Shown in pieces: positions 34,199 to 62,889 of a stretch of 63,386 nt of DNA. The stretch lies in the NCBI GenBank assembly GCA_017651465.1, contig JAGCCX010000053.1, forward strand, positions 1 to 63,386, written 5' to 3'. The notes below the pieces were generated by a model. It was not told the origin of the DNA, ran no database searches, and saw nothing but the letters and a program-made list of their open reading frames with translations. The position numbers and the translations under genes were made by a program. This DNA comes from Bacteroidales bacterium (lineage in GTDB: Bacteria > Bacteroidota > Bacteroidia > Bacteroidales > UBA932). Each line of letters begins with the position of its first letter. Within the stretch, counting starts at the first letter, position 1.

Positions 34199-34276
34199 AG
34201 GGGCGTAGCTCAGCTGGTTTAGAGCGCTTCAGTCACATTGAAGAGGTCGTCGGTTCGAATCCGACCGTCCCTACCA
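34199..34276 (+). tRNA. tRNA-Val (anticodon CAC), CCA encoded
   Basis: Complete cloverleaf: acceptor stem AGGGGCG/CGTCCCT (one G-U), D-stem GCTC/GAGC, anticodon stem CTTCA/TGAAG with loop GTCACAT giving anticodon CAC, 5-nt variable loop AGGTC, T-stem GTCGG/CCGAC with TTCGAAT loop, discriminator A and genomic CCA. It reads valine GUG codons. A terminator follows at once. Confidence 0.95.
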
Positions 34277-54513: not shown

Positions 54514-55134
54514 TTATTCACAAGCGGGCGGGACGGTTTTCCGGTGCCGGAGAGCCAGCTCTTGCTGGATGTCGGCCAGACTCACATTCATCTCTTCCAT
54601 CAGAACCAGAAGGTGATACAGCAGGTCGCCAGTCTCGTAAACAAAGCGCTCCCGGTTTCCATCAACAGCCTCGATTACAGCCTCTGCAGCCTCCTCGCAC
54701 ACTTTCTTTCCTATGGTCTTTGCTCCTTTGATAAAGAGTTTTGTGGTATAGGAGCCGGCAGGCAGTTCCTGGTGCCGGCTCTGGATAAGCGCGGCCAGCT
54801 CTCCGATAAAGCCTTCGGCGTCGGGCGTGTCAAAACAGCTTGTGGTTCCCCTATGGCACACGGGGCCGTCGGGAACCACCGTCACCAGCAGGGTGTCGCC
54901 GTCACAGTCGAGGTACATATCCTTAACGTGCAGAAAATTGCCGCTTGTTTCTCCTTTGGTCCAAAGGCAATTCCTCGTGCGGGACCAAAAACTCACCACG
55001 CCTTCCGAGCAGGTCTTCTCAAAGGCCTCACGGTTCATATAACCCAGCATCAGCACTTTACTGCTTCGCGCGTCCTGGATGATGGCGGGGAGCAGCCCGC
55101 CGTTTTTACTCAGATTGAATGAATCAAAATCCAT
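54514..55134 (-). CDS. hisIE: Bifunctional phosphoribosyl-AMP cyclohydrolase / phosphoribosyl-ATP pyrophosphatase
   Basis: 206 residues. HisI domain (about 1-115) with the zinc-site motif 'DCDGD' (metal D's) and 'CHRGTTSCF' cysteines; HisE domain (about 118-206) with the nucleotide-pyrophosphatase helices 'KKVCEEAAEAVIEAV' and 'ETGDLLYHLLVLM'. It performs steps 2 and 3 of histidine synthesis, as in the E. coli HisI(IE) fusion. Last gene of the his operon, 13 bp after hisF. Confidence 0.96.
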   Translation of the reverse strand: MDFDSFNLSKNGGLLPAIIQDARSSKVLMLGYMNREAFEKTCSEGVVSFWSRTRNCLWTKGETSGNFLHVKDMYLDCDGDTLLVTVVPDGPVCHRGTTSCFDTPDAEGFIGELAALIQSRHQELPAGSYTTKLFIKGAKTIGKKVCEEAAEAVIEAVDGNRERFVYETGDLLYHLLVLMEEMNVSLADIQQELALRHRKTVPPACE

Positions 55135-55147
55135 ATTATTGTGTTCT

Positions 55148-55915
55148 TTAGGTTAAACGGACGGGAACCCCGGCCTTTTGCAGGGCTTCCTTCACCTGGA
55201 GTATGCTTATTTGCCCGTAGTGGAAAATGCTTGCGGCCAGTGCGGCATCGGCGTGCCCTTCCGTGAGTACTTCAACGATATCGGCTATGCTTCCCGCGCC
55301 TCCGGACGCAATCACCGGGATCGACAGCAGCTCGTGAAGCTGAGAATACAGCCCGCAGGCAAAGCCGTTGCGGGTACCGTCGTGCTCCATAGAGGTGAAC
55401 AATATCTCTCCGGCGCCACGATCCTGTGCCTCCCGGGCCCAGGAAAAGAGTTCCCGCTCCGTGTATTTCCTGCCTCCGTGGGTAGTGCAGAGCCATCTCT
55501 CCGAGCCAGGGTCCATCCTCTTTGCATCTATAGCCACTACCACGAACTGGCTCCCATACCTGCCGGCAATCTCTCCTATGAGCTCCGGCCTTGCAAGGGC
55601 GGCTGAATTAATGGAGATTTTGTCGGCTCCGGCGTCCAGCAGGCGCGAGGCGTCGTCCAGGGAACCTATGCCGCCGCCCACGGTGAAGGGAATGTCTATG
55701 CCGCGGGCTATCTGACTTACCAAAGACGAAAAAGTCTTTCGCCCCTCGGCAGTTGCGCTGATGTCCAGAAACACCAGTTCGTCGGCACCTTCACGCGCAT
55801 ACTGAGTCCCCATCTCCACAGGATCGCCGACCTGCCTGAGGCCCTGGAAATTGATACCTTTTACTACCTGTCCGTCCTTTACATCGAGGCAGGGAATGAT
55901 TCTTTTTGCGAGCAT
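55148..55915 (-). CDS. hisF: Imidazole glycerol phosphate synthase, cyclase subunit
   Basis: 255 residues, TIM barrel. N-terminal '[23 protein letters not shown]' with catalytic Asp (CLDV) and the second catalytic Asp in 'VVAIDAKRM'. It closes the imidazole ring using ammonia from HisH. Its start lies 37 bp inside the hisA gene, an unusually long overlap, so translational coupling to HisA is likely. Confidence 0.97.
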
Positions 55916-56631
55916 TCTGCGATGTCTTTTAAGCTGATGCGATTCTCATAAATGGCCTTTCCTACAATTACTTTCGGCACTCCTGCGCTGTCGAGCGCCC
56001 GGATATCCTCCAGGGAGGAGACTCCGCCGCTGGCTGTAAAAGAAAGGTCGGGAAAGTTGCTGATGAGGCTTTCATACAAGGCGAAGGACGGGCCTTGCAG
56101 CATACCGTCGCGGCCTATGTCGGTAACGATAACTTCCTGAAGCTTATTGCCCTCTGCCTGAGTGAAGCGGCGGAGCAGACTGTCGATGGTCAAAGACGTA
56201 TCATCCATCCATCCGCGTACCGCTATAAGGCCGTCACGCACATCGGCTCCCAGAATAATCTTCGCTCCAAAGCGGCTGAGCCATAGGGCGAACAAATCGG
56301 GCTGCAGGGCAGCCACGCTGCCTACAATGGCGTAGGAGGCTCCGCTGTCGAAAACCCTTTGCAGGTCCTGTTCGGCAGCTATGCCGCCGCCCCATTCCAG
56401 TTCGCACTGGACGGCGGACGCTATGGCTTCCAGCGTAGCGAGGTTGCGTGAAGCCCCGGCCTTGGCGCCTTCCAGGTCAACCAGGTGGATACGGCGCACT
56501 CCGCAATCGGCAAAGCGCCGGGCGGCATCGACAGGGGAGGCATCGTATCTTTTTACACTGCCATAATCGCCTTTGGTCAGGCGTACGCAGCGCCCCTCGA
56601 TTATATCGATAGCAGGAAGAATCTGTATCAT
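55879..56631 (-). CDS. hisA: ProFAR isomerase HisA
   Basis: 250 residues, TIM barrel with the half-barrel symmetry of HisA: catalytic D in '[14 protein letters not shown]' and '[14 protein letters not shown]' with the second catalytic Asp. It converts ProFAR to PRFAR. Its C-terminal 37 bp overlap the hisF start; its start overlaps the hisH stop by four bases. Confidence 0.97.
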
Positions 56632-57215
56632 AGATCAAGGAAATTTTGCAAAATCTGCTGTCCCACCGCTCCGCTTTTCTCGGGGTGGAACTGCGTTCCG
56701 TAGAAATTCTCGTATTTTAGAGCAGCGCTGAAAAGGGTAGAGCCGTAGCGGCAGGTTGCTATGGTGTCGGTGCAGCAGAGCGGATAATATGAATGCACGA
56801 AATACACGCAGGCTCCTTCGGGAATCCCGCGGAATAACTTGCTGTCCAGATTGCCGAGAGAATTCCAGCCCATATGCGGAACCCGCACCTGGGGCTCGGA
56901 GGGGAAACGGCGGACGTGGGCGTCAAACACTCCCATCCCTTTGCTATTTCCTTCTTCCGAATCCCTGCACAGGACCTGTAAACCCACGCAAATGCCAAGC
57001 ACAGGCTGGCGGAGCGCCCGGATTACGGTATCCAGACCGCTCTGGCGGAGGCTTTCCAGGGCGCTGCTTGCGTGTCCTACTCCGGGCAGGATTACACGTT
57101 CTGCGGCATTAAGGCGCAGGGGATCGGCAGTCACCTCATAAGCTGCTCCCAGGCGTTCGAGGGCATTGGAGACGGAGAAAATGTTTCCGGCCGCGTAATC
57201 TACAATTGCAATCAT
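56628..57215 (-). CDS. hisH: Imidazole glycerol phosphate synthase, glutaminase subunit
   Basis: 195 residues, class I glutamine amidotransferase. Nucleophile Cys in 'PVLGICVGLQVLC', catalytic His/Glu in 'FYGTQFHPEKS'. It supplies ammonia to HisF. Overlaps hisA and hisB by four bases on each side. Confidence 0.96.
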   Translation of the reverse strand: MIAIVDYAAGNIFSVSNALERLGAAYEVTADPLRLNAAERVILPGVGHASSALESLRQSGLDTVIRALRQPVLGICVGLQVLCRDSEEGNSKGMGVFDAHVRRFPSEPQVRVPHMGWNSLGNLDSKLFRGIPEGACVYFVHSYYPLCCTDTIATCRYGSTLFSAALKYENFYGTQFHPEKSGAVGQQILQNFLDL

Positions 57216-58270
57216 AACAGTCCTTTGCTGGAGGGTAAATCGTAAGAGAACACGTTGCGCTCGACGGCTTGCCGCAGCGAGCGTGCGAAGGCCTTGAAAA
57301 TGCTTTCCGCCAGATGATGGTTGTTCTCTCCCCGCGCCTGAACGTAAATATTGGCGTGCATAGCGTCGGAGAGCGATTTGAAGAAGTGACGGAACAATTC
57401 TGTCGGCATATCGCCCACGTATTCACGGGTAAAGGTGACATCCCACACCAGTTCGCTCCGCCCGCCGAAATCCAGCAGCACAAAGGCGCGGCTTTCATCC
57501 ATAGGCAGGGCAAAGCCGTAGCGTCCTATGCCCCGCTTGTCGCCGAGGGCCGAGGCGAGAGCCTGCCCCAGAACGATGGCAGTATCTTCTACGCTGTGAT
57601 GCTCGTCCACTTCCAGATCGCCCTTGCAGCGCAGCTGGAGTGCGATGCCGCCGTGGTGTACGAGCTGCGAGAGCATATGGTCGAAGAAGTGCAGGCCGGT
57701 CTCCACCCACGAGGGTCCTATACCGTCCAGATCGACGGTAACGGAGATGTCCGTTTCGGCAGTCTTGCGCTCTACGGTGGCGCGGCGGGAGATCGAGCGG
57801 ATACGCTCGGCAATCTCCGCCCAGCTCATCGGGCCGACTTTCAGGGCCGTGGCTCCCAGATTGGCGGCCAGTTGGACGTCGCTCTCCCTGTCTCCGACAA
57901 CAAAGCTCCCGGCAAGGTCGTAACTGCCATCCATATAGGCCTTCAGGAGGCCTGTACGGGGTTTTCGGGTGGGGGCGTTGTCTTGGGGGAAGCTGCGGTC
58001 GATCAGGATGTCATCAAAGACCACTCCCTCTCCTCGCAGGGTGTCCAGCAGCAAGTTTTGACAGGGCAGGAAGTCCTCTTCCGGGAAGGAAGGAGTTCCC
58101 AGGCCGTCCTGGTTGCTCACCATTACAAGTTCATATCCCAGTCCGGCGATAGCTTTGAGGCCGGATATGGCCCCCGGAGCAAAGGCGAACTTGTCCAGGG
58201 AATCTATCTGCTCATCGGCAGGTTCGACCAGCAACGTTCCGTCACGGTCGATGAAGATGGCTTTCTTCAT
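57212..58270 (-). CDS. hisB: Bifunctional histidinol-phosphatase / imidazoleglycerol-phosphate dehydratase
   Basis: 352 residues from the ATG at 58270; an upstream open frame exists but this start coincides with the HisB N-terminus and with a 4-bp overlap of the hisDC stop. HAD phosphatase domain (about 1-160; nucleophile pair in 'FIDRDGTLL', Mg site 'GDRESD') followed by IGPD (about 165-352; Mn-binding His motifs 'FFDHML' and 'HHSVEDTA'). It performs two steps, as in E. coli HisB. Confidence 0.96.
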   Translation of the reverse strand: MKKAIFIDRDGTLLVEPADEQIDSLDKFAFAPGAISGLKAIAGLGYELVMVSNQDGLGTPSFPEEDFLPCQNLLLDTLRGEGVVFDDILIDRSFPQDNAPTRKPRTGLLKAYMDGSYDLAGSFVVGDRESDVQLAANLGATALKVGPMSWAEIAERIRSISRRATVERKTAETDISVTVDLDGIGPSWVETGLHFFDHMLSQLVHHGGIALQLRCKGDLEVDEHHSVEDTAIVLGQALASALGDKRGIGRYGFALPMDESRAFVLLDFGGRSELVWDVTFTREYVGDMPTELFRHFFKSLSDAMHANIYVQARGENNHHLAESIFKAFARSLRQAVERNVFSYDLPSSKGLL

Positions 58271-60582
58271 AGGTCGGGAGTTGTTTTGAGTTTGGCAAAA
58301 AGCACCAGCGAATCGGCCAGGCGGCGGTTTTCCTCCGGAGTGCCCACGGTTATGCGCAGCGACCCTTCGCACTGCAGTACTCGGCTTCGGTCCCTGACTA
58401 TGATGCCCCCTTCCAGCAGGTAGTCATATAGAGCCTGCGGGTCATCTACCTTTACCAGGAGGAAGTTGGCGTCGCTAGGGAACACCCGCTGCACATAGGG
58501 CAGGCTGGAGAGGGTGCGTGCAAGAGCCTCGCGCTGAGCCAGGATCTCCTTGATATAGCCCTCTACAGGCTGCTCGAGGGCGCTTAAAGCGAGTTGCTGG
58601 GCAGGCTGGTTCACGTTGTAAGGGTACTTCACCCGGTCCATCGCTTTTATGATGGAGGCATCGGCAAACGCCATTCCTACGCGCAGCCCCGCAAGGCCAT
58701 AGGCCTTTGAGAGGGTTTGCAGTATGACCAGCCGGGGGAAGCGGTCGAGAAGGGGGAGCAGAGAGCCCTTGGAGCTGAAATCGGCATACGCCTCGTCCAC
58801 TACTGTGATGCCGGGGAATTGCTCTATGACGGCCGAGAGCTCTTCAATTGAAAAGGCGTTGCCGGTAGGATTGTTAGGGCTGCAGATAAAGAGCAACTTG
58901 GTATGGGGCGCAGAGGCTTCGGCTATTGCACCTGCGGGCAGAGAGTAGTTGTCTCCCAGAGGGATAGTGCACACGCCCACATCGTTGGTCCGGGCAGCCA
59001 CTGTGTACATACCGTAGCTGGGAAAAAGGATAATAGCCTTGTCGCGTCCGGGCTCACAGAAGATGCGGAACATCAGGTCTATGGCTTCGTCACTGCCGTT
59101 CCCGAGGAAGATATTCTCCACATCGACTCCCTTAATTGCCGAGAGCTTCTGCTTAAGGATGCGCTGACGGGGGTCGGGATAGCGGTTCCAACCGGTATTA
59201 TAAGGGCTTTCGTTGGCATCCAGAAAGACTTCCGGGGTTCCGGCGCATTCGTCCCTGGCGGTAGAATAGGGAGTCAGCGCACGGATATTGGGCCGCATCA
59301 GGGCTTCGGCCCTGGCGAGCCTCACCGAAACCGCCTGAGCGTGGGCGTCAAGTCCTTCGGCCTGGGCCATTGACAGTATGGTGGGCGCCAACAGCCTCAG
59401 TCCATCAGGCGTTAGCTCCTGAAGGGTCATCTTGCGGAGGAAACTATCCACATTTACTCCGCTGAAAGCACTCGCCCAGCCACCCGTGGGCAGGGTGTGG
59501 TTGGTGCCGGAGGCATAGTCCCCGGCACTTTCCGGAGACCAGGAGCCGATAAAGACGCTGCCGGCTGCGGTGATACGCCTCGCCGCGGAACCGGCATCCT
59601 GGACAGACAGGATTAAGTGCTCCGGGGCATAGGCTTCTGCAAATTCGATTGCATCATCCAGACTCTCAAGGACTATGATGCGGCTGTGAGTCAGCGCTTC
59701 TTGAGTGAAATTCGCCCTTGACAGGGCTTTAAGTTGCTTGCCGACTTCTTCCTGCACACGTTGGGCAAAGGCCTCCGAGAGGCACAGCAGCATCACCTGG
59801 CTGTCCGCTCCGTGTTCGGCCTGTGAAAGGAGGTCGGCGGCTACAAATGCCGGGATAGCAGTATCGTCCGCCACGATCATTACCTCGGAAGGGCCTGCCG
59901 GCATATCGATGGCAACTGTCTGCATACTAAGCAGTTGCTTGGCCGTGGTTACATACCTGTTTCCGGGGCCGAAAATCTTGTCAACCCTGGGAATGGTGGC
60001 GGTGCCGTATGCCATAGCGGCAATAGCCTGAGCTCCGCCTACCCGGAATACCCGGCGTATGCCGCAGAAGCGGGCGGCGTACAAAACCTCCGCTGCGATC
60101 TCGCCGTTTTGCCCGGCCGGAGAACAGAGAATGACCTCCTGGCATCCGGCAACTGAAGCGGGAATGGCGAGCATCAGCACCGTGGAAAAGAGCGGAGCCG
60201 TTCCTCCCGGAATGTAGAGACCTGCGCGGCGGATAGGGACGGGGCGCTGCGTGCAGGTGACTCCGGGAATTGTTTCCACGCAGATTTCGCGAGGAAGCTG
60301 AGCCTGGTGAAAGGCCCGGATGTTCGCCGCAGCCTTTAGGATGGCTTCCCGCACATCCGCCGATACCTTTGCTTCTGCGGCCTCCAGCTCTGCCTCGGAC
60401 ACGGCTATCTCAACTTCGCGGCGGTCAATCTCCATCGAGAGCTGCCGCAAGGCTGCATCTCCGTCTTCGCGCACTCGAGATAGGATATCCTCGACTCGCG
60501 CGCGCAACTGCGGATCGTCCCTGAGCGGCCTGCGGCACAGTGACGGCCAAAGGCTTTTGGGAGGGTAAAGAGTAATTTCCAT
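58267..60582 (-). CDS. hisDC: Histidinol dehydrogenase fused to histidinol-phosphate aminotransferase
   Basis: 771 residues. HisD part (about 1-425): zinc/NAD enzyme with 'GGAQAIAAMAYGT', catalytic Glu/His region 'SQAEHGADSQ', and 'PTGGWASAFSG'. HisC part (about 428-771): fold-type I PLP enzyme with 'PNNPTGNAFS' and 'VDEAYADF', PLP lysine in 'TLSKAYGLAGLRVG', and 'RVLQCEGSLRITVG'. HisD normally ends just where this reading continues and HisC normally begins with 'xMRPNIRALTPYS'; at the joint the DNA reads CTGATG (59298 is the M), a TGATG signature compatible with an ancestral stop/start overlap. So the fusion may derive from a one-base indel or be an assembly error. Starts 4 bp after hisG. 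Confidence 0.93.
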   Translation of the reverse strand: MEITLYPPKSLWPSLCRRPLRDDPQLRARVEDILSRVREDGDAALRQLSMEIDRREVEIAVSEAELEAAEAKVSADVREAILKAAANIRAFHQAQLPREICVETIPGVTCTQRPVPIRRAGLYIPGGTAPLFSTVLMLAIPASVAGCQEVILCSPAGQNGEIAAEVLYAARFCGIRRVFRVGGAQAIAAMAYGTATIPRVDKIFGPGNRYVTTAKQLLSMQTVAIDMPAGPSEVMIVADDTAIPAFVAADLLSQAEHGADSQVMLLCLSEAFAQRVQEEVGKQLKALSRANFTQEALTHSRIIVLESLDDAIEFAEAYAPEHLILSVQDAGSAARRITAAGSVFIGSWSPESAGDYASGTNHTLPTGGWASAFSGVNVDSFLRKMTLQELTPDGLRLLAPTILSMAQAEGLDAHAQAVSVRLARAEALMRPNIRALTPYSTARDECAGTPEVFLDANESPYNTGWNRYPDPRQRILKQKLSAIKGVDVENIFLGNGSDEAIDLMFRIFCEPGRDKAIILFPSYGMYTVAARTNDVGVCTIPLGDNYSLPAGAIAEASAPHTKLLFICSPNNPTGNAFSIEELSAVIEQFPGITVVDEAYADFSSKGSLLPLLDRFPRLVILQTLSKAYGLAGLRVGMAFADASIIKAMDRVKYPYNVNQPAQQLALSALEQPVEGYIKEILAQREALARTLSSLPYVQRVFPSDANFLLVKVDDPQALYDYLLEGGIIVRDRSRVLQCEGSLRITVGTPEENRRLADSLVLFAKLKTTPDL

Positions 60583-60586
60583 AAGG

Positions 60587-61471
60587 CTAGGGAATAATTT
60601 TGTCTGTATTCAGTACCAGGATACCTTCGGCTCCTATGGCCTTCAGCTGGCGTATCTTTTCCCACAACTGGGACTCTTCGATTACGGCGTGCATAGCATA
60701 CCATCCCTGGGCCGCAAGCGGCATAATGGTCGGGCTTCGCATAGCGGGCACAATCCGGACCGCCTGCTCGATGGCCTCTTGAGGCAGATTCATCACCAGA
60801 TACTTCTTTTGGCGGCTTACCAATGCCGAATCTATACGGAAGAGGAGCTCGTCCAGCAGAGGCTGTTTGGCCGCGGGGAGCTGGCCACAGGCGACCAGGA
60901 CCGCCTGCGAATGAAACACTTTCTCCACTTCCTTCAAGCCATTGGAGACCAGGGTGCCTCCCGATGAAACTATGTCGAAGATAGCATCGGCTATGCCGGC
61001 TGCAGGCGCTACTTCCACGGAGCCAGCGATGACCTCAATGAGGGCATTCACCCCTATCCCTGACAGATAGTGCCGAAGGATGTTGGGATAAGAAGTGGCG
61101 ATACGCTTGCCTTCGAACCAGGCAGGAGAGTCGCAAGGCTCAGCTTTGGGAACCGCCAGGGAGATGCGGCACTGGCCGAAGCCCAACTCCCGGATGATCT
61201 GCAGGGGAGAGCCGTCGATAGTTCCGTCGGTGCTGTTTTCGGCAACTTCGTTAAGGCCGACGATTCCGAGGTCGGCAGTTCCGGCAGCCACCACTTGCGG
61301 GATGTCGTCGTCTCGCAGGTACAGTACCTCCAGAGGGAAATCTGGGGCCTGGGCCAGAAACTTCCGTTTGCTTTCATCGATCTTGATGCCGATGTCGCGC
61401 AAGAGCGCCATACTGTCTTCATTCAGCCTGCCTTTGGCCTGAATGGCGATACGCAATAAACTGTTTTCCAT
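60587..61471 (-). CDS. hisG: ATP phosphoribosyltransferase HisG, long form
   Basis: 294 residues, the long (HisZ-independent) form. Catalytic PBP-like domains ('RLAIQAKGRLNED', 'GTADLGIVGLNE', 'ATSYPNILRHYL', 'EVAPAAGIADAIFDIVSSG') and a C-terminal regulatory PII/ACT-like domain (about 220-294) through which histidine inhibits the enzyme. First committed step of histidine synthesis. First gene of the operon; expression is likely controlled by the leader peptide and attenuator upstream. Confidence 0.96.
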   Translation of the reverse strand: MENSLLRIAIQAKGRLNEDSMALLRDIGIKIDESKRKFLAQAPDFPLEVLYLRDDDIPQVVAAGTADLGIVGLNEVAENSTDGTIDGSPLQIIRELGFGQCRISLAVPKAEPCDSPAWFEGKRIATSYPNILRHYLSGIGVNALIEVIAGSVEVAPAAGIADAIFDIVSSGGTLVSNGLKEVEKVFHSQAVLVACGQLPAAKQPLLDELLFRIDSALVSRQKKYLVMNLPQEAIEQAVRIVPAMRSPTIMPLAAQGWYAMHAVIEESQLWEKIRQLKAIGAEGILVLNTDKIIP

Positions 61472-61485
61472 TGTGCAAACAAAAT

Positions 61486-61514
61486 AAAAAAAGGACCCAC
61501 CTTGCGGCGAGTCC
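61486..61514 (-). terminator. his attenuator terminator hairpin
   Basis: On the minus strand GGACTCGCC pairs with GGTGGGTCC around a GCAA tetraloop (61514-61493), followed by seven U residues (61492-61486): a strong intrinsic terminator between the leader peptide stop and the hisG start. A competing pairing is available: GCGGC (61566-61562) with GCCGC inside the 5' arm, an antiterminator-like option. Confidence 0.85.
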
Positions 61515-61541
61515 CATATCTCCTGTTATATTGTAGTTCAA

Positions 61542-61622
61542 TCAAAGGGATACAGCAAACTGCCGCGTCTTTTGGAAGCGGTGTGCGTGATGGTGCCAGT
61601 GATTGACATTCAATAAGTTCAT
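61542..61622 (-). CDS. hisL: His-rich leader peptide of the histidine operon
   Basis: 26 residues, minus strand, ATG at 61622 and TGA at 61544-61542. Residues 8-14 read HWHHHAH: five His codons in seven, the regulatory run that makes ribosomes stall when charged tRNA-His is scarce. Stalling would allow the alternative pairing and disrupt the downstream terminator; free translation would let it form. The -7 element ends four bases before the ATG, so the leader mRNA probably begins at the start codon. Support is direct: position, His codons, stop, terminator and promoter are all visible. The attenuation mechanism is inferred from the enterobacterial his leader. Confidence 0.85.
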   Translation of the reverse strand: MNLLNVNHWHHHAHRFQKTRQFAVSL

Positions 61623-61626
61623 ACTG

Positions 61627-61634
61627 CAAATATA
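61627..61634 (-). promoter_or_regulatory. -7 promoter element TATATTTG of the his operon, four bases from the hisL ATG
   Basis: Perfect TAnnTTTG on the minus strand, followed by CAGT and the hisL ATG (61622). Transcription should start at or next to the ATG. No convincing -33 TTTG is seen. Confidence 0.65.
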
Positions 61635-61734: not shown

Positions 61735-62889
61735 ATGACCATTAGACTGGAGACGCAGGCCGATTACCGCGAGGTAGAAAACCTCACCCGCGAGGCATTC
61801 TGGAACGTTTATCGCCCCGGCTGCACGGAGCATTTTGTGCTGAACCAATATCGGAGCAACCCCGATTTTATCCCTGAACTGGATTTCGTGATGGAGGAGG
61901 ATGGGCATCTGATCGGCCACGTTATGTTCTCAAGGGCAGAACTGATCCTGCCCGACGGGGCCAAAAAATCTTCCTGGACTTTCGGCCCCATCAGCATACA
62001 CCCCGACTATAAACGTAAAGGCTTCGGGCTGAAGTTGCTCCAATATGCATTGGCAGAAGCCCGCAAGAGGGGAGTCGGGTTCATTTGTATGGAAGGGAAT
62101 ATCGACTTCTACAAGCACGCGGGATTCGGTCTTGCCAGCAGGTTCAACATTCGCTATCACGACTTCCCTGAGGAGGCGGATGTACCGTTCTTCCTCGCCC
62201 AGGAACTCATACCCGGCTGGCTCAAGGCAAATGGCATAGAAGAAGCCACTTATTGCCCGCCCGGGGGCTATTTCGTCGCCGATGAGAATCCGGAGGCCTT
62301 TGAGCAGTATGAGGCGTCGTTCCCGCCTAAGGAGAAACTGCGTCTGCCGGGGCAGCTGACTTTTGATGGTGTGATGGAGACCGGCCGTATCATTCTCCGG
62401 CCCTGGCAGGAGGGCGATGCTGCCATTCTTTATAAGTGGGCGTCGGATCCGGATGTTGGGCCTCGCGCCGGCTGGCCACCGCACAAATCAGTCGAGGAAA
62501 GTCTTGACATAATTCGGACGGTTTTTCATAACGATTCGAACTGGGCCATTGAATTAAAAGAGACAGGGCAAGCTATAGGCGCTATGGGTTTCGGCCCTTC
62601 GTGCGAGTGCAATCTGCCCGCACGTGATGGAGAGCCGCTGGCCGGGTATTGGATTGCCAAACCATACTGGAACAGAGGTATTTGCACTGAGGCACTTAAA
62701 CTTATGATTGAGTATATCCGGAAGAGCACTGATATTAAGTCCCTGATAAGCGGGCACTTCGTGGATAATCCGGCCAGCGGCCGAGTTATGCAAAAGTGCG
62801 GATTCCTCCCTACCGGCGAAACCGTCATAGACGAGACCCAGTATATGGGTGCCGGCCGGCCTATCAGGGTAATGCGCCTGCAGCTATAA
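61735..62889 (+). CDS. Fusion of two GNAT acetyltransferase domains
   Basis: 384 residues. Residues about 1-200 are an Eis/YhbS-type GNAT ('FGPISIHPDYKRKGFGLKLLQYAL' holds the acetyl-CoA P-loop R-x-x-G-x-G/A). Residues about 215-384 are a RimJ/RimL-type GNAT ('RIILRPWQEGDAAILYKW', 'GYWIAKPYWNRGICTEAL' with P-loop RGICTEA, 'RVMQKCGF'). Both should transfer acetyl groups from acetyl-CoA; substrates are unknown. Divergent from the his operon. Such tandem-GNAT fusions occur but are uncommon. Promoter 22 bases upstream. Confidence 0.88.
   Translation: MTIRLETQADYREVENLTREAFWNVYRPGCTEHFVLNQYRSNPDFIPELDFVMEEDGHLIGHVMFSRAELILPDGAKKSSWTFGPISIHPDYKRKGFGLKLLQYALAEARKRGVGFICMEGNIDFYKHAGFGLASRFNIRYHDFPEEADVPFFLAQELIPGWLKANGIEEATYCPPGGYFVADENPEAFEQYEASFPPKEKLRLPGQLTFDGVMETGRIILRPWQEGDAAILYKWASDPDVGPRAGWPPHKSVEESLDIIRTVFHNDSNWAIELKETGQAIGAMGFGPSCECNLPARDGEPLAGYWIAKPYWNRGICTEALKLMIEYIRKSTDIKSLISGHFVDNPASGRVMQKCGFLPTGETVIDETQYMGAGRPIRVMRLQL

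What the first reader, a model, noticed from the sequence alone, without database searches (positions are those of the whole stretch)
61486..61634. A His-codon leader peptide, attenuator hairpin and leaderless-looking promoter control the his operon
A 26-codon ORF with five His codons in seven (HWHHHAH) ends 27 bases before a perfect GC-rich terminator (GGACTCGCC-GCAA-GGTGGGTCC-U7), and a GCGGC/GCCGC pairing offers an antiterminator. The -7 element sits only four bases from the leader ATG, so the leader mRNA would be translated from its very 5' end. Classic attenuation is known from enterobacteria; a leaderless version in a Bacteroidota with few Shine-Dalgarno sites would be a distinct design.
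Basis: partly seen in the sequence, partly recalled or inferred. Interest (0 to 1): 0.7.

Follow-up and report, generated by a model that had tools for sequence, protein, structure and literature searches.

The report
Leaderless histidine attenuator in Bacteroidales
In front of this bacterium's histidine genes sits a tiny histidine-rich gene plus two competing RNA hairpins that most likely let the cell switch the genes off when histidine is plentiful; the kind of switch is classic, but here the message probably begins at the tiny gene's own start codon, and the same switch turns up in many relatives.

Summary
It is not chance: a mechanical rule finds His leaders before hisG in 64 of 80 and 24 of 28 near loci (9 of the 28 repeat loci of the 80) and 48 of 69 other Bacteroidota upstreams. 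An antiterminator (D pairing with the terminator's 5' arm, E) is supported by covariation in 43 sequences. The last His codon lies 14-20 nt before D in 43 of 43, as expected if a ribosome stalled on His codons leaves D free. This is ribosome-mediated attenuation (inferred; no expression data). Leaderless is likely but inferred from promoter spacing. It is not special to the attenuator: 9 of 34 motif-bearing promoters sampled in this genome sit as close, an Alistipes clade keeps the attenuator with a longer 5' leader, and leaderless attenuators are known in Sinorhizobium and Mycobacterium. New detail: the leader stop that the closest relative has inside D (TAG) reads CAG here, extending the peptide.

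The parts
61627..61634 (-). -7 promoter element TATATTTG (TAnnTTTG type)
   Evidence: a motif with at least 5 of the 6 fixed bases lies at most 30 nt before the leader ATG in 69 of 80 unique near leaders, window included (46 at 1-9 nt, 1 at 11, 22 at 16-30); exact in 36 of the 46 and 21 of the 23
61622..61622 (-). predicted transcription start, the A of the leader ATG (leaderless)
   Evidence: inference: 4 nt between -7 and ATG; F. johnsoniae starts 4-5 nt after -7 (PMC6847099, passages)
61542..61622 (-). leader peptide ORF, 26 codons, MNLLNVNHWHHHAHRFQKTRQFAVSL
61581..61601 (-). regulatory His codons (5 of 7 codons, HWHHHAH)
   Evidence: His run at this place in relatives
61600..61614 (-). 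segment A (in leader codons 3-8), can pair with B
   Evidence: (p 0.07 for the window; weak)
61557..61566 (-). segment D GCGGCAGTTT, 5' half of the antiterminator; GGTAGG in most relatives of alignment A1
   Evidence: (p 0.02)
61560..61562 (-). CAG (Gln21) where the closest relative L002 has the leader's TAG stop
   Evidence: D-to-stop distance -25 against -7..+5 in the 42 others
61530..61544 (-). segment B, overlaps the stop codon, can pair with A
61504..61514 (-). segment E, 5' arm of the terminator and 3' half of the antiterminator
61493..61501 (-). segment F, 3' arm of the terminator
   Evidence: 96.8% of cells paired, 5 of 8 pairs with changes on both sides
61486..61492 (-). T7 run of the terminator
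60587..61471 (-). hisG
   Evidence: Pfam HisG and HisG_C
58267..60582 (-). hisD-hisC fused ORF (771 aa)
   Evidence: Pfam Histidinol_dh 18-422 and Aminotran_1_2 459-759
57212..58270 (-). hisNB
   Evidence: Pfam IGPD; the N-terminal HAD-like match is just below its cut-off
56628..57215 (-). hisH
   Evidence: Pfam GATase
55879..56631 (-). hisA
   Evidence: Pfam His_biosynth; A rather than F by operon order and reading, recalled
55148..55915 (-). hisF
   Evidence: Pfam His_biosynth; F rather than A by reading, recalled
54514..55134 (-). hisIE
   Evidence: Pfam PRA-CH and PRA-PH

Best explanation
A ribosome-mediated transcription attenuator of the his operon, translated from an mRNA that most likely starts at the leader's AUG. 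RNA polymerase starts at or within a few bases of the AUG, and a ribosome loads on the 5' end and translates the leader close behind the polymerase. When charged tRNA-His is scarce the ribosome stalls on the His codons. Its front edge ends just before segment D, so D pairs with E before F is made; the terminator cannot form and the his genes are transcribed. When histidine is ample the ribosome runs on over D to the stop, E pairs with F, and transcription ends at the T7 run. Shown by sequence: leader, terminator, alternative pairing, conservation, geometry, promoter spacing. Inferred: start site, stalling, termination and response to histidine.
For: Leader ORF with at least 3 His in 7 codons before hisG in 64 of 80 genome-contig loci, 24 of 28 same-genus loci (9 of them the same loci as in the first set, and L109/L110 are two pieces of one gene) and 48 of 69 wider Bacteroidota upstreams. 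Terminator-like hairpin after the leader in 124 of 137. On 43 sequences: D:E 88.3% of cells paired, 33 cells with changes on both sides, 0 of 500 shuffles as high, every slid register far lower; E:F 96.8%, 19 such cells. D:E better than shuffles at p<=0.05 in 81 of 113 unique leaders, window p 0.02. Last His codon to D 14-20 nt in 43 of 43, window 17, while the stop position varies. Model folds with a masked ribosome: mean share of E paired to D is 0.91 when stalled at the first His (over 0.5 in 41 of 43), 0.08 with the ribosome at the stop. In the window, with a 15-nt rear footprint and upstream RNA free to pair, D:E is formed at each of the 5 His stalls and is absent at the stop (before F). 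D:E -14.6 and E:F -15.4 kcal/mol. Promoter spacing: 46 of 80 unique leaders at 1-9 nt.
Against: No expression or start-site data. In the window the no-ribosome fold also lets D pair with E before F exists, so a protecting A:B hairpin is not clear here (A:B p 0.07; p<=0.05 in only 38 of 113). The leader stop lies 18 nt beyond its place in the closest relative, so a terminating ribosome would cover D from behind only in part. By the rule, 16 of the 80 nearest loci show no leader (one of them, L044, has one, and L055 is cut by its contig end); the two next-closest HisG relatives, L003 and L004, are among the 16. Once F is made, equilibrium folding favours the terminator in every ribosome state, so the switch must be kinetic. 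Two of the five D:E measures are not clearly above shuffles: pairs with a change on both sides (47 of 500 as high) and further pair types (184 of 500).
Confidence: 0.88

Rival explanations
1. The attenuator is real, but the transcript has an ordinary 5' leader made from a promoter farther upstream, and the close -7 box is minor or unused.
For: 87% of the F. johnsoniae transcripts with a probable promoter have leaders over 10 nt (PMC6847099, passages), and only about 3.7% of B. thetaiotaomicron 5' UTRs are under 10 nt (PMC7366714, passages). The Alistipes/Rikenellaceae clade has the same attenuator with 10-30 nt spacing. I did not search for other promoter types upstream.
Against: The -7 box is an exact consensus match. 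Spacing of 1-9 nt is kept in 46 of 80 unique leaders and is one of two separate modes in this genome's own genes: 9 of 34 at 1-9 nt, 2 at 10-19, 8 at 20-29; four control motifs give 0 or 1 at 1-9 nt. In the relatives' loci the contrast is weaker: 8 of 32 for the motif, 2 of 7 and 1 of 16 for two controls.
Confidence: 0.17
2. The leader is decaying in this strain: loss of the TAG stop in D has uncoupled termination from translation, and the operon is now mostly constitutive.
For: CAG replaces TAG in D; the stop is an outlier; the sister loci L003 and L004 show no leader.
Against: D:E can still form, read from the alignment: the lost stop turned a U-G pair into C-G, and a G-C pair further along is replaced by U-A with a one-base bulge. 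The terminator is intact and His-to-D distance is normal (17 nt). L225, in another genus of the family, also has CAG in D with an ORF running five further codons to TGA, and in the wider phylum sample D mostly lies inside the ORF (median 15 nt before the stop end, 38 unique leaders).
Confidence: 0.1
3. The His-rich peptide is a product in its own right (for example a metal-binding peptide), and the hairpin is a plain terminator.
For: His-rich peptides can bind metals (general knowledge). peTrpL shows that a leader peptide can act in trans (PMC7298713).
Against: Outside the His run the peptides of different clades differ, whereas D:E and E:F are kept with covariation. The element sits before hisG.
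Confidence: 0.02

Closest known systems
his operon attenuator of enterobacteria (hisL; Rfam His_leader, accession RF00514 recalled)
   Same: His-codon leader ORF, terminator before hisG, alternative antiterminator, same operon
   Different: No Rfam match at the gathering score in the window or in 20 relatives nor a His leader match at E<=5 in the leader; own D/E sequence (GGTAGG/GGCTTACC); Bacteroidota -7 promoter; start of transcript predicted at or near the leader AUG
Sinorhizobium meliloti trpL (rnTrpL/peTrpL)
   Same: Attenuator whose transcript begins with the ATG of the leader ORF (PMC7298713, passages)
   Different: Trp, Alphaproteobacteria; experimentally studied
Leaderless polycysteine ORFs of mycobacteria
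   Same: Leaderless short ORF with a run of one codon that acts as an amino-acid-responsive attenuator (Canestrari 2020, seen only as cited in PMC9031893; earlier proposal in PMC4633059, passages)
   Different: Cys; the passage seen speaks of translation of downstream genes and mentions no terminator hairpin
His leader attenuators of Firmicutes (B. cereus group and others)
   Same: His-rich leader plus terminator and antiterminator found by comparative genomics (PMC9413887, passages; PMC2965389, passages)
   Different: Other phylum; the main text of PMC9413887 does not contain 'Bacteroid'
Lopatovskaya, Seliverstov and Lyubetsky 2010, survey of attenuation in bacteria (doi 10.1134/S0026893310010164)
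   Same: Title covers amino acid operons across bacteria; may already list Bacteroidetes
   Different: Seen only as an entry in a reference list; content not read

Membership tests
Ribosome-mediated transcription attenuators of amino acid operons | Short ORF rich in codons of the operon's product | tested here: met
Ribosome-mediated transcription attenuators of amino acid operons | Intrinsic terminator between leader and first gene | tested here: met
Ribosome-mediated transcription attenuators of amino acid operons | Mutually exclusive antiterminator | tested here: met
Ribosome-mediated transcription attenuators of amino acid operons | Geometry: a ribosome on the regulatory codons leaves the antiterminator half free, a ribosome that goes on covers it | tested here: met
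   (43 of 43 at 14-20 nt); cover at the window's own stop is only partial, though D:E is absent there in the model
Ribosome-mediated transcription attenuators of amino acid operons | Protecting hairpin (A:B) that gives termination without translation | tested here: inconclusive
   p<=0.05 in 38 of 113; 25 of 43 protected in the model, the window not
Ribosome-mediated transcription attenuators of amino acid operons | Read-through responds to amino acid supply | not testable with these tools
   no expression data
Rfam His_leader (RF00514, accession recalled) | Match to the covariance model | tested here: not met
Leaderless mRNAs | Promoter places the start at or within a few nt of the AUG | tested here: met
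   4 nt spacing; calibration from PMC6847099
Leaderless mRNAs | Mapped 5' end at the AUG | not testable with these tools
   no transcript data
T-box or other known riboswitch | Rfam match in the leader | tested here: not met
   the only window match is a tRNA at 34199; two sub-threshold matches (BjrC68, mir-1277), taken as chance

The most novel reading that the evidence does not exclude
Bacteroidota, which lack Shine-Dalgarno sites, use a home-grown class of attenuators as a main control of amino acid operons (His widely; Asn before asnA and Thr before aspartokinase genes in some Bacteroidales). In most of the non-Alistipes Bacteroidales sampled these are translated from 5'-terminal or nearly 5'-terminal AUGs, so that ribosome loading is set by emergence of the 5' end and the polymerase-to-ribosome distance is fixed from the first nucleotide.
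Probability: 0.35. Interest if true: 0.6.

Novelty: new member of a known kind. Interest (0 to 1): 0.4.

Why it matters
It extends amino-acid attenuation to the Bacteroidales, where the passages I saw either do not treat leader-peptide control or only suspect it. It also gives a compact test of whether 5'-terminal AUGs are used efficiently in a phylum without Shine-Dalgarno sites. The conserved 14-20 nt His-to-D distance is a natural ruler of the ribosome's front edge.

Tried and rejected
Searched for sibling leaders in this genome. A Trp-codon pattern after TTTG...ATG gave 41 matches against 27 for the control; I read the list by eye and followed one hit, which lies inside a coding gene. No IlvD family match, and one partial HMGL-like match, in the genome. 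Its asnA and its aspartokinase gene have no leader detected. Model R1 has one strong match in the genome, the his leader itself (E 3e-13; the next is a partial match at 0.002). The idea that leaderlessness is special to the attenuator was dropped. The idea that the CAG in D marks plain decay was lowered. In one search the window's D fell outside the searched stretch (p 0.49); with the full stretch gave p 0.02. One search found no Asn-rich leader before asnA in the 19 of 24 loci where a gene start was found mechanically; its thrA part could not see gene starts (flanks too short). One search found Thr/Ile-rich ORFs in 3 of the 18 loci (of 20) with a gene start, one of them (L330) not convincing. 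Rows dropped before counts: A1 holds 42 of the 59 genome contigs leaders with a terminator (85% identity cut); one A1 row (L077) has a doubtful D. The rule missed L044, which has a leader.

Full report
What is there. On the minus strand the window carries, in order: a -7 element TATATTTG (61627-61634), four bases, a 26-codon ORF (61622-61542) with HWHHHAH, 27 bases, a 9-10 bp hairpin with a GCAA loop and T7 (61514-61486), then hisG at 61471. Downstream lie a fused hisD-hisC, hisNB, hisH, hisA, hisF and hisIE (Pfam), so a whole his operon follows. Upstream is a divergent acetyltransferase gene that starts at 61735.

Not chance. In 323 kb of this genome, 5 of 2962 short ATG ORFs have 4 or more His in 7 codons, and only this one has 5. 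Rfam has no match at the gathering score for the element in the window or in 20 related loci; with a loose threshold two chance-level matches appear.

Conservation. I took 80 hisG loci from named genomes, 28 loci from 27 same-genus genomes (of 60 searched beside the window's own), and upstreams of 69 of the 137 other Bacteroidota genomes with a hisG match. Nine of the 28 repeat loci of the 80, and L109/L110 are pieces of one gene. A mechanical rule (ATG ORF with at least 3 His in 7 codons within 330 nt) found leaders in 64 of 80, 24 of 28 and 48 of 69; with at least 4 His it was 58, 23 and 40. Of the 16 misses among the 80, L044 has a leader and L055 is cut by its contig end. A few of the phylum rows (for example L120 and L160) look like chance. 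A terminator-like hairpin follows 124 of 137 leaders. Outside the His run the peptides of different clades differ.

Antiterminator. Most rows of A1 have GGTAGG (segment D) at or just after the leader stop, and GGCTTACC or GGCTTGCC as the terminator's 5' arm (E). These pair. On A1 (the window plus 42 of 59 loci left after an 85% identity cut), D:E has 88.3% of cells paired against 24-52% in slid registers, and 33 cells with changes on both sides against 16.2 in shuffles (0 of 500 as high). Two of the five measures are not clearly above shuffles (47 and 184 of 500). E:F has 96.8% paired and 5 of 8 pairs with changes on both sides. Single-sequence shuffles give p<=0.05 for D:E in 81 of 113 unique leaders, including families whose D is quite different (CTCAAGCG with CGTTTGAG). 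In the window D:E is GCGGCAGUUU with GGACU[C]GCCGC, -14.6 kcal/mol, against -15.4 for E:F: balanced, as a kinetic switch needs.

Geometry. From the first base of the last His codon to D is 14-20 nt in 43 of 43 (17 in 25, including the window), while D relative to the stop ranges from -25 to +5. With D located freely by pairing, it is 12-21 nt in 73 of 75 near leaders and 24 of 38 distant ones. That matches the front half of a ribosome waiting on a His codon (footprint recalled, about 12-15 nt). Folding the RNA up to the point just before F, with everything behind the ribosome's front left out, gives a mean share of E paired to D of 0.91 when stalled at the first His (over 0.5 in 41 of 43) and 0.08 at the stop; without a ribosome it is 0.33. 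The window is not protected in the no-ribosome state (0.85). With a 15-nt rear footprint and RNA behind the ribosome free to pair, the window's D:E forms at all five His stalls and not at codon 21 or the stop; once F is present the terminator wins in every state. One row of A1 (L077) has a doubtful D.

The stop. In the closest relative L002 the leader stops at the TAG inside D (GCGG TAG). In the window the same triplet is CAG, so the ORF runs six codons further. Read from the alignment, the change turned a U-G pair of D:E into C-G, and a G-C pair further along is replaced by U-A with a one-base bulge, so the pairing is kept. L225 of another genus of the family also has CAG in D and five more codons before TGA, and in the wider phylum sample D mostly lies inside the ORF. 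I read this as a tolerated variant, not decay, but it may raise basal expression.

Leaderless? In F. [quoted passage not shown] Of 80 unique near leaders (window included; first in-frame ATG after the motif, motif with at least 5 of 6 fixed bases) 46 have 1-9 nt between motif and ATG, 1 has 11, 22 have 16-30, 6 have only a far match and 5 have none; 36 of the 46 motifs are exact. In the 48 phylum leaders it is 14 at 1-9, 4 at 10-15, 15 at 16-30, 9 beyond and 6 none. In this genome's own unit-first genes the spacing is two-humped: 9 of 34 at 1-9, 2 at 10-19, 8 at 20-29, 12 at 30-49 and 3 beyond; four control motifs give 0-1 at 1-9 (window plus 13 stretches, 94 genes). In the relatives' loci it is 8 of 32 at 1-9, with controls 2 of 7 and 1 of 16, so the contrast there is weaker. 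So close promoters look like a general habit of this lineage, more than the ~3.7% under 10 nt in B. thetaiotaomicron (PMC7366714, passages) or the 13% at 10 nt or less implied for F. johnsoniae. On a HisG tree of 81 rows the longer spacing fits one clade (Alistipes/Rikenellaceae, 17 rows, support 75/86) and short spacing is found in 42 rows elsewhere. The attenuator thus works, or at least persists, with either kind of 5' end. L003 and L004, sisters of the window and L002, show no leader and carry a -7 element 6 nt before the first in-frame hisG ATG.

Comparison with the known. By function this is a classic His attenuator. Leaderless attenuators are in print for S. meliloti trpL (PMC7298713, passages) and M. 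smegmatis Cys ORFs (as cited in PMC9031893). [quoted passage not shown] Ryan 2020 saw short ORFs in long B. thetaiotaomicron 5' UTRs 'reminiscent of leader peptides' (PMC7366714). In a study of his genes in Bacteroidota the word stem 'attenuat' occurs once, for enterobacteria, and 'leader' not at all (PMC8305728). My searches (listings) showed no report of His leaders in Bacteroidota, but Lopatovskaya 2010 could not be read and may hold one.

Beyond His. The model built from these leaders (R1) has one strong match in this genome. In 59 family genomes 32 have a match at E<=0.001, many of them probably plain terminators. I fetched 10 of the non-top matches: 2 are Asn-run leaders before asnA (L249, L251; Pfam AsnA), 1 is a Thr/Ile leader before an amino acid kinase gene, aspartokinase by reading (L250), 3 are His leaders before hisG (L252, L255, L256), and 4 show nothing convincing. 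Convincing Thr leaders also stand before the aspartokinase gene in L328 and L333. This genome's own asnA and aspartokinase gene have none detected. So the wider lineage uses the same device for several amino acids, unevenly.

Noticed in passing
L249 and L251 (same family, other genera): Leaders with runs of Asn codons (NNLLNNNLNNN; RNNNNLFNNSNNN), a D-like GGGAGG and a terminator stand before asnA genes (Pfam AsnA): a possible asparagine attenuator. One search (listing) showed no paper on one.
   Followed up: partly
L250, L328, L333: Thr/Ile-rich leaders (for example MIRTTEHTAILTTTPWGVQ) stand before aspartokinase-type genes in other Bacteroidales.
   Followed up: partly
window 58267-60582: hisD and hisC are one ORF of 771 aa; open frames over 800 codons at the same place occur in the nearest relatives L002, L003 and L004, and six other loci of 80 have frames of 604-711 codons, not identified.
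   Followed up: partly
L003 and L004, upstream of hisG: Sister loci show no leader and have the -7 element TACCTTTG 6 nt before the first in-frame hisG ATG: possibly a natural loss of the attenuator with a near-leaderless hisG.
   Followed up: partly
window and L202-L214: Spacing of TAnnTTTG to ATG is two-humped (1-9 nt and 20 nt or more) with few at 10-19 nt, which suggests a separate near-leaderless class of genes in this genome.
   Followed up: partly
window, between 61622 and 61735, + strand: The divergent acetyltransferase gene appears to have its own TATATTTG box (read), so the two promoters are back to back.
   Followed up: no
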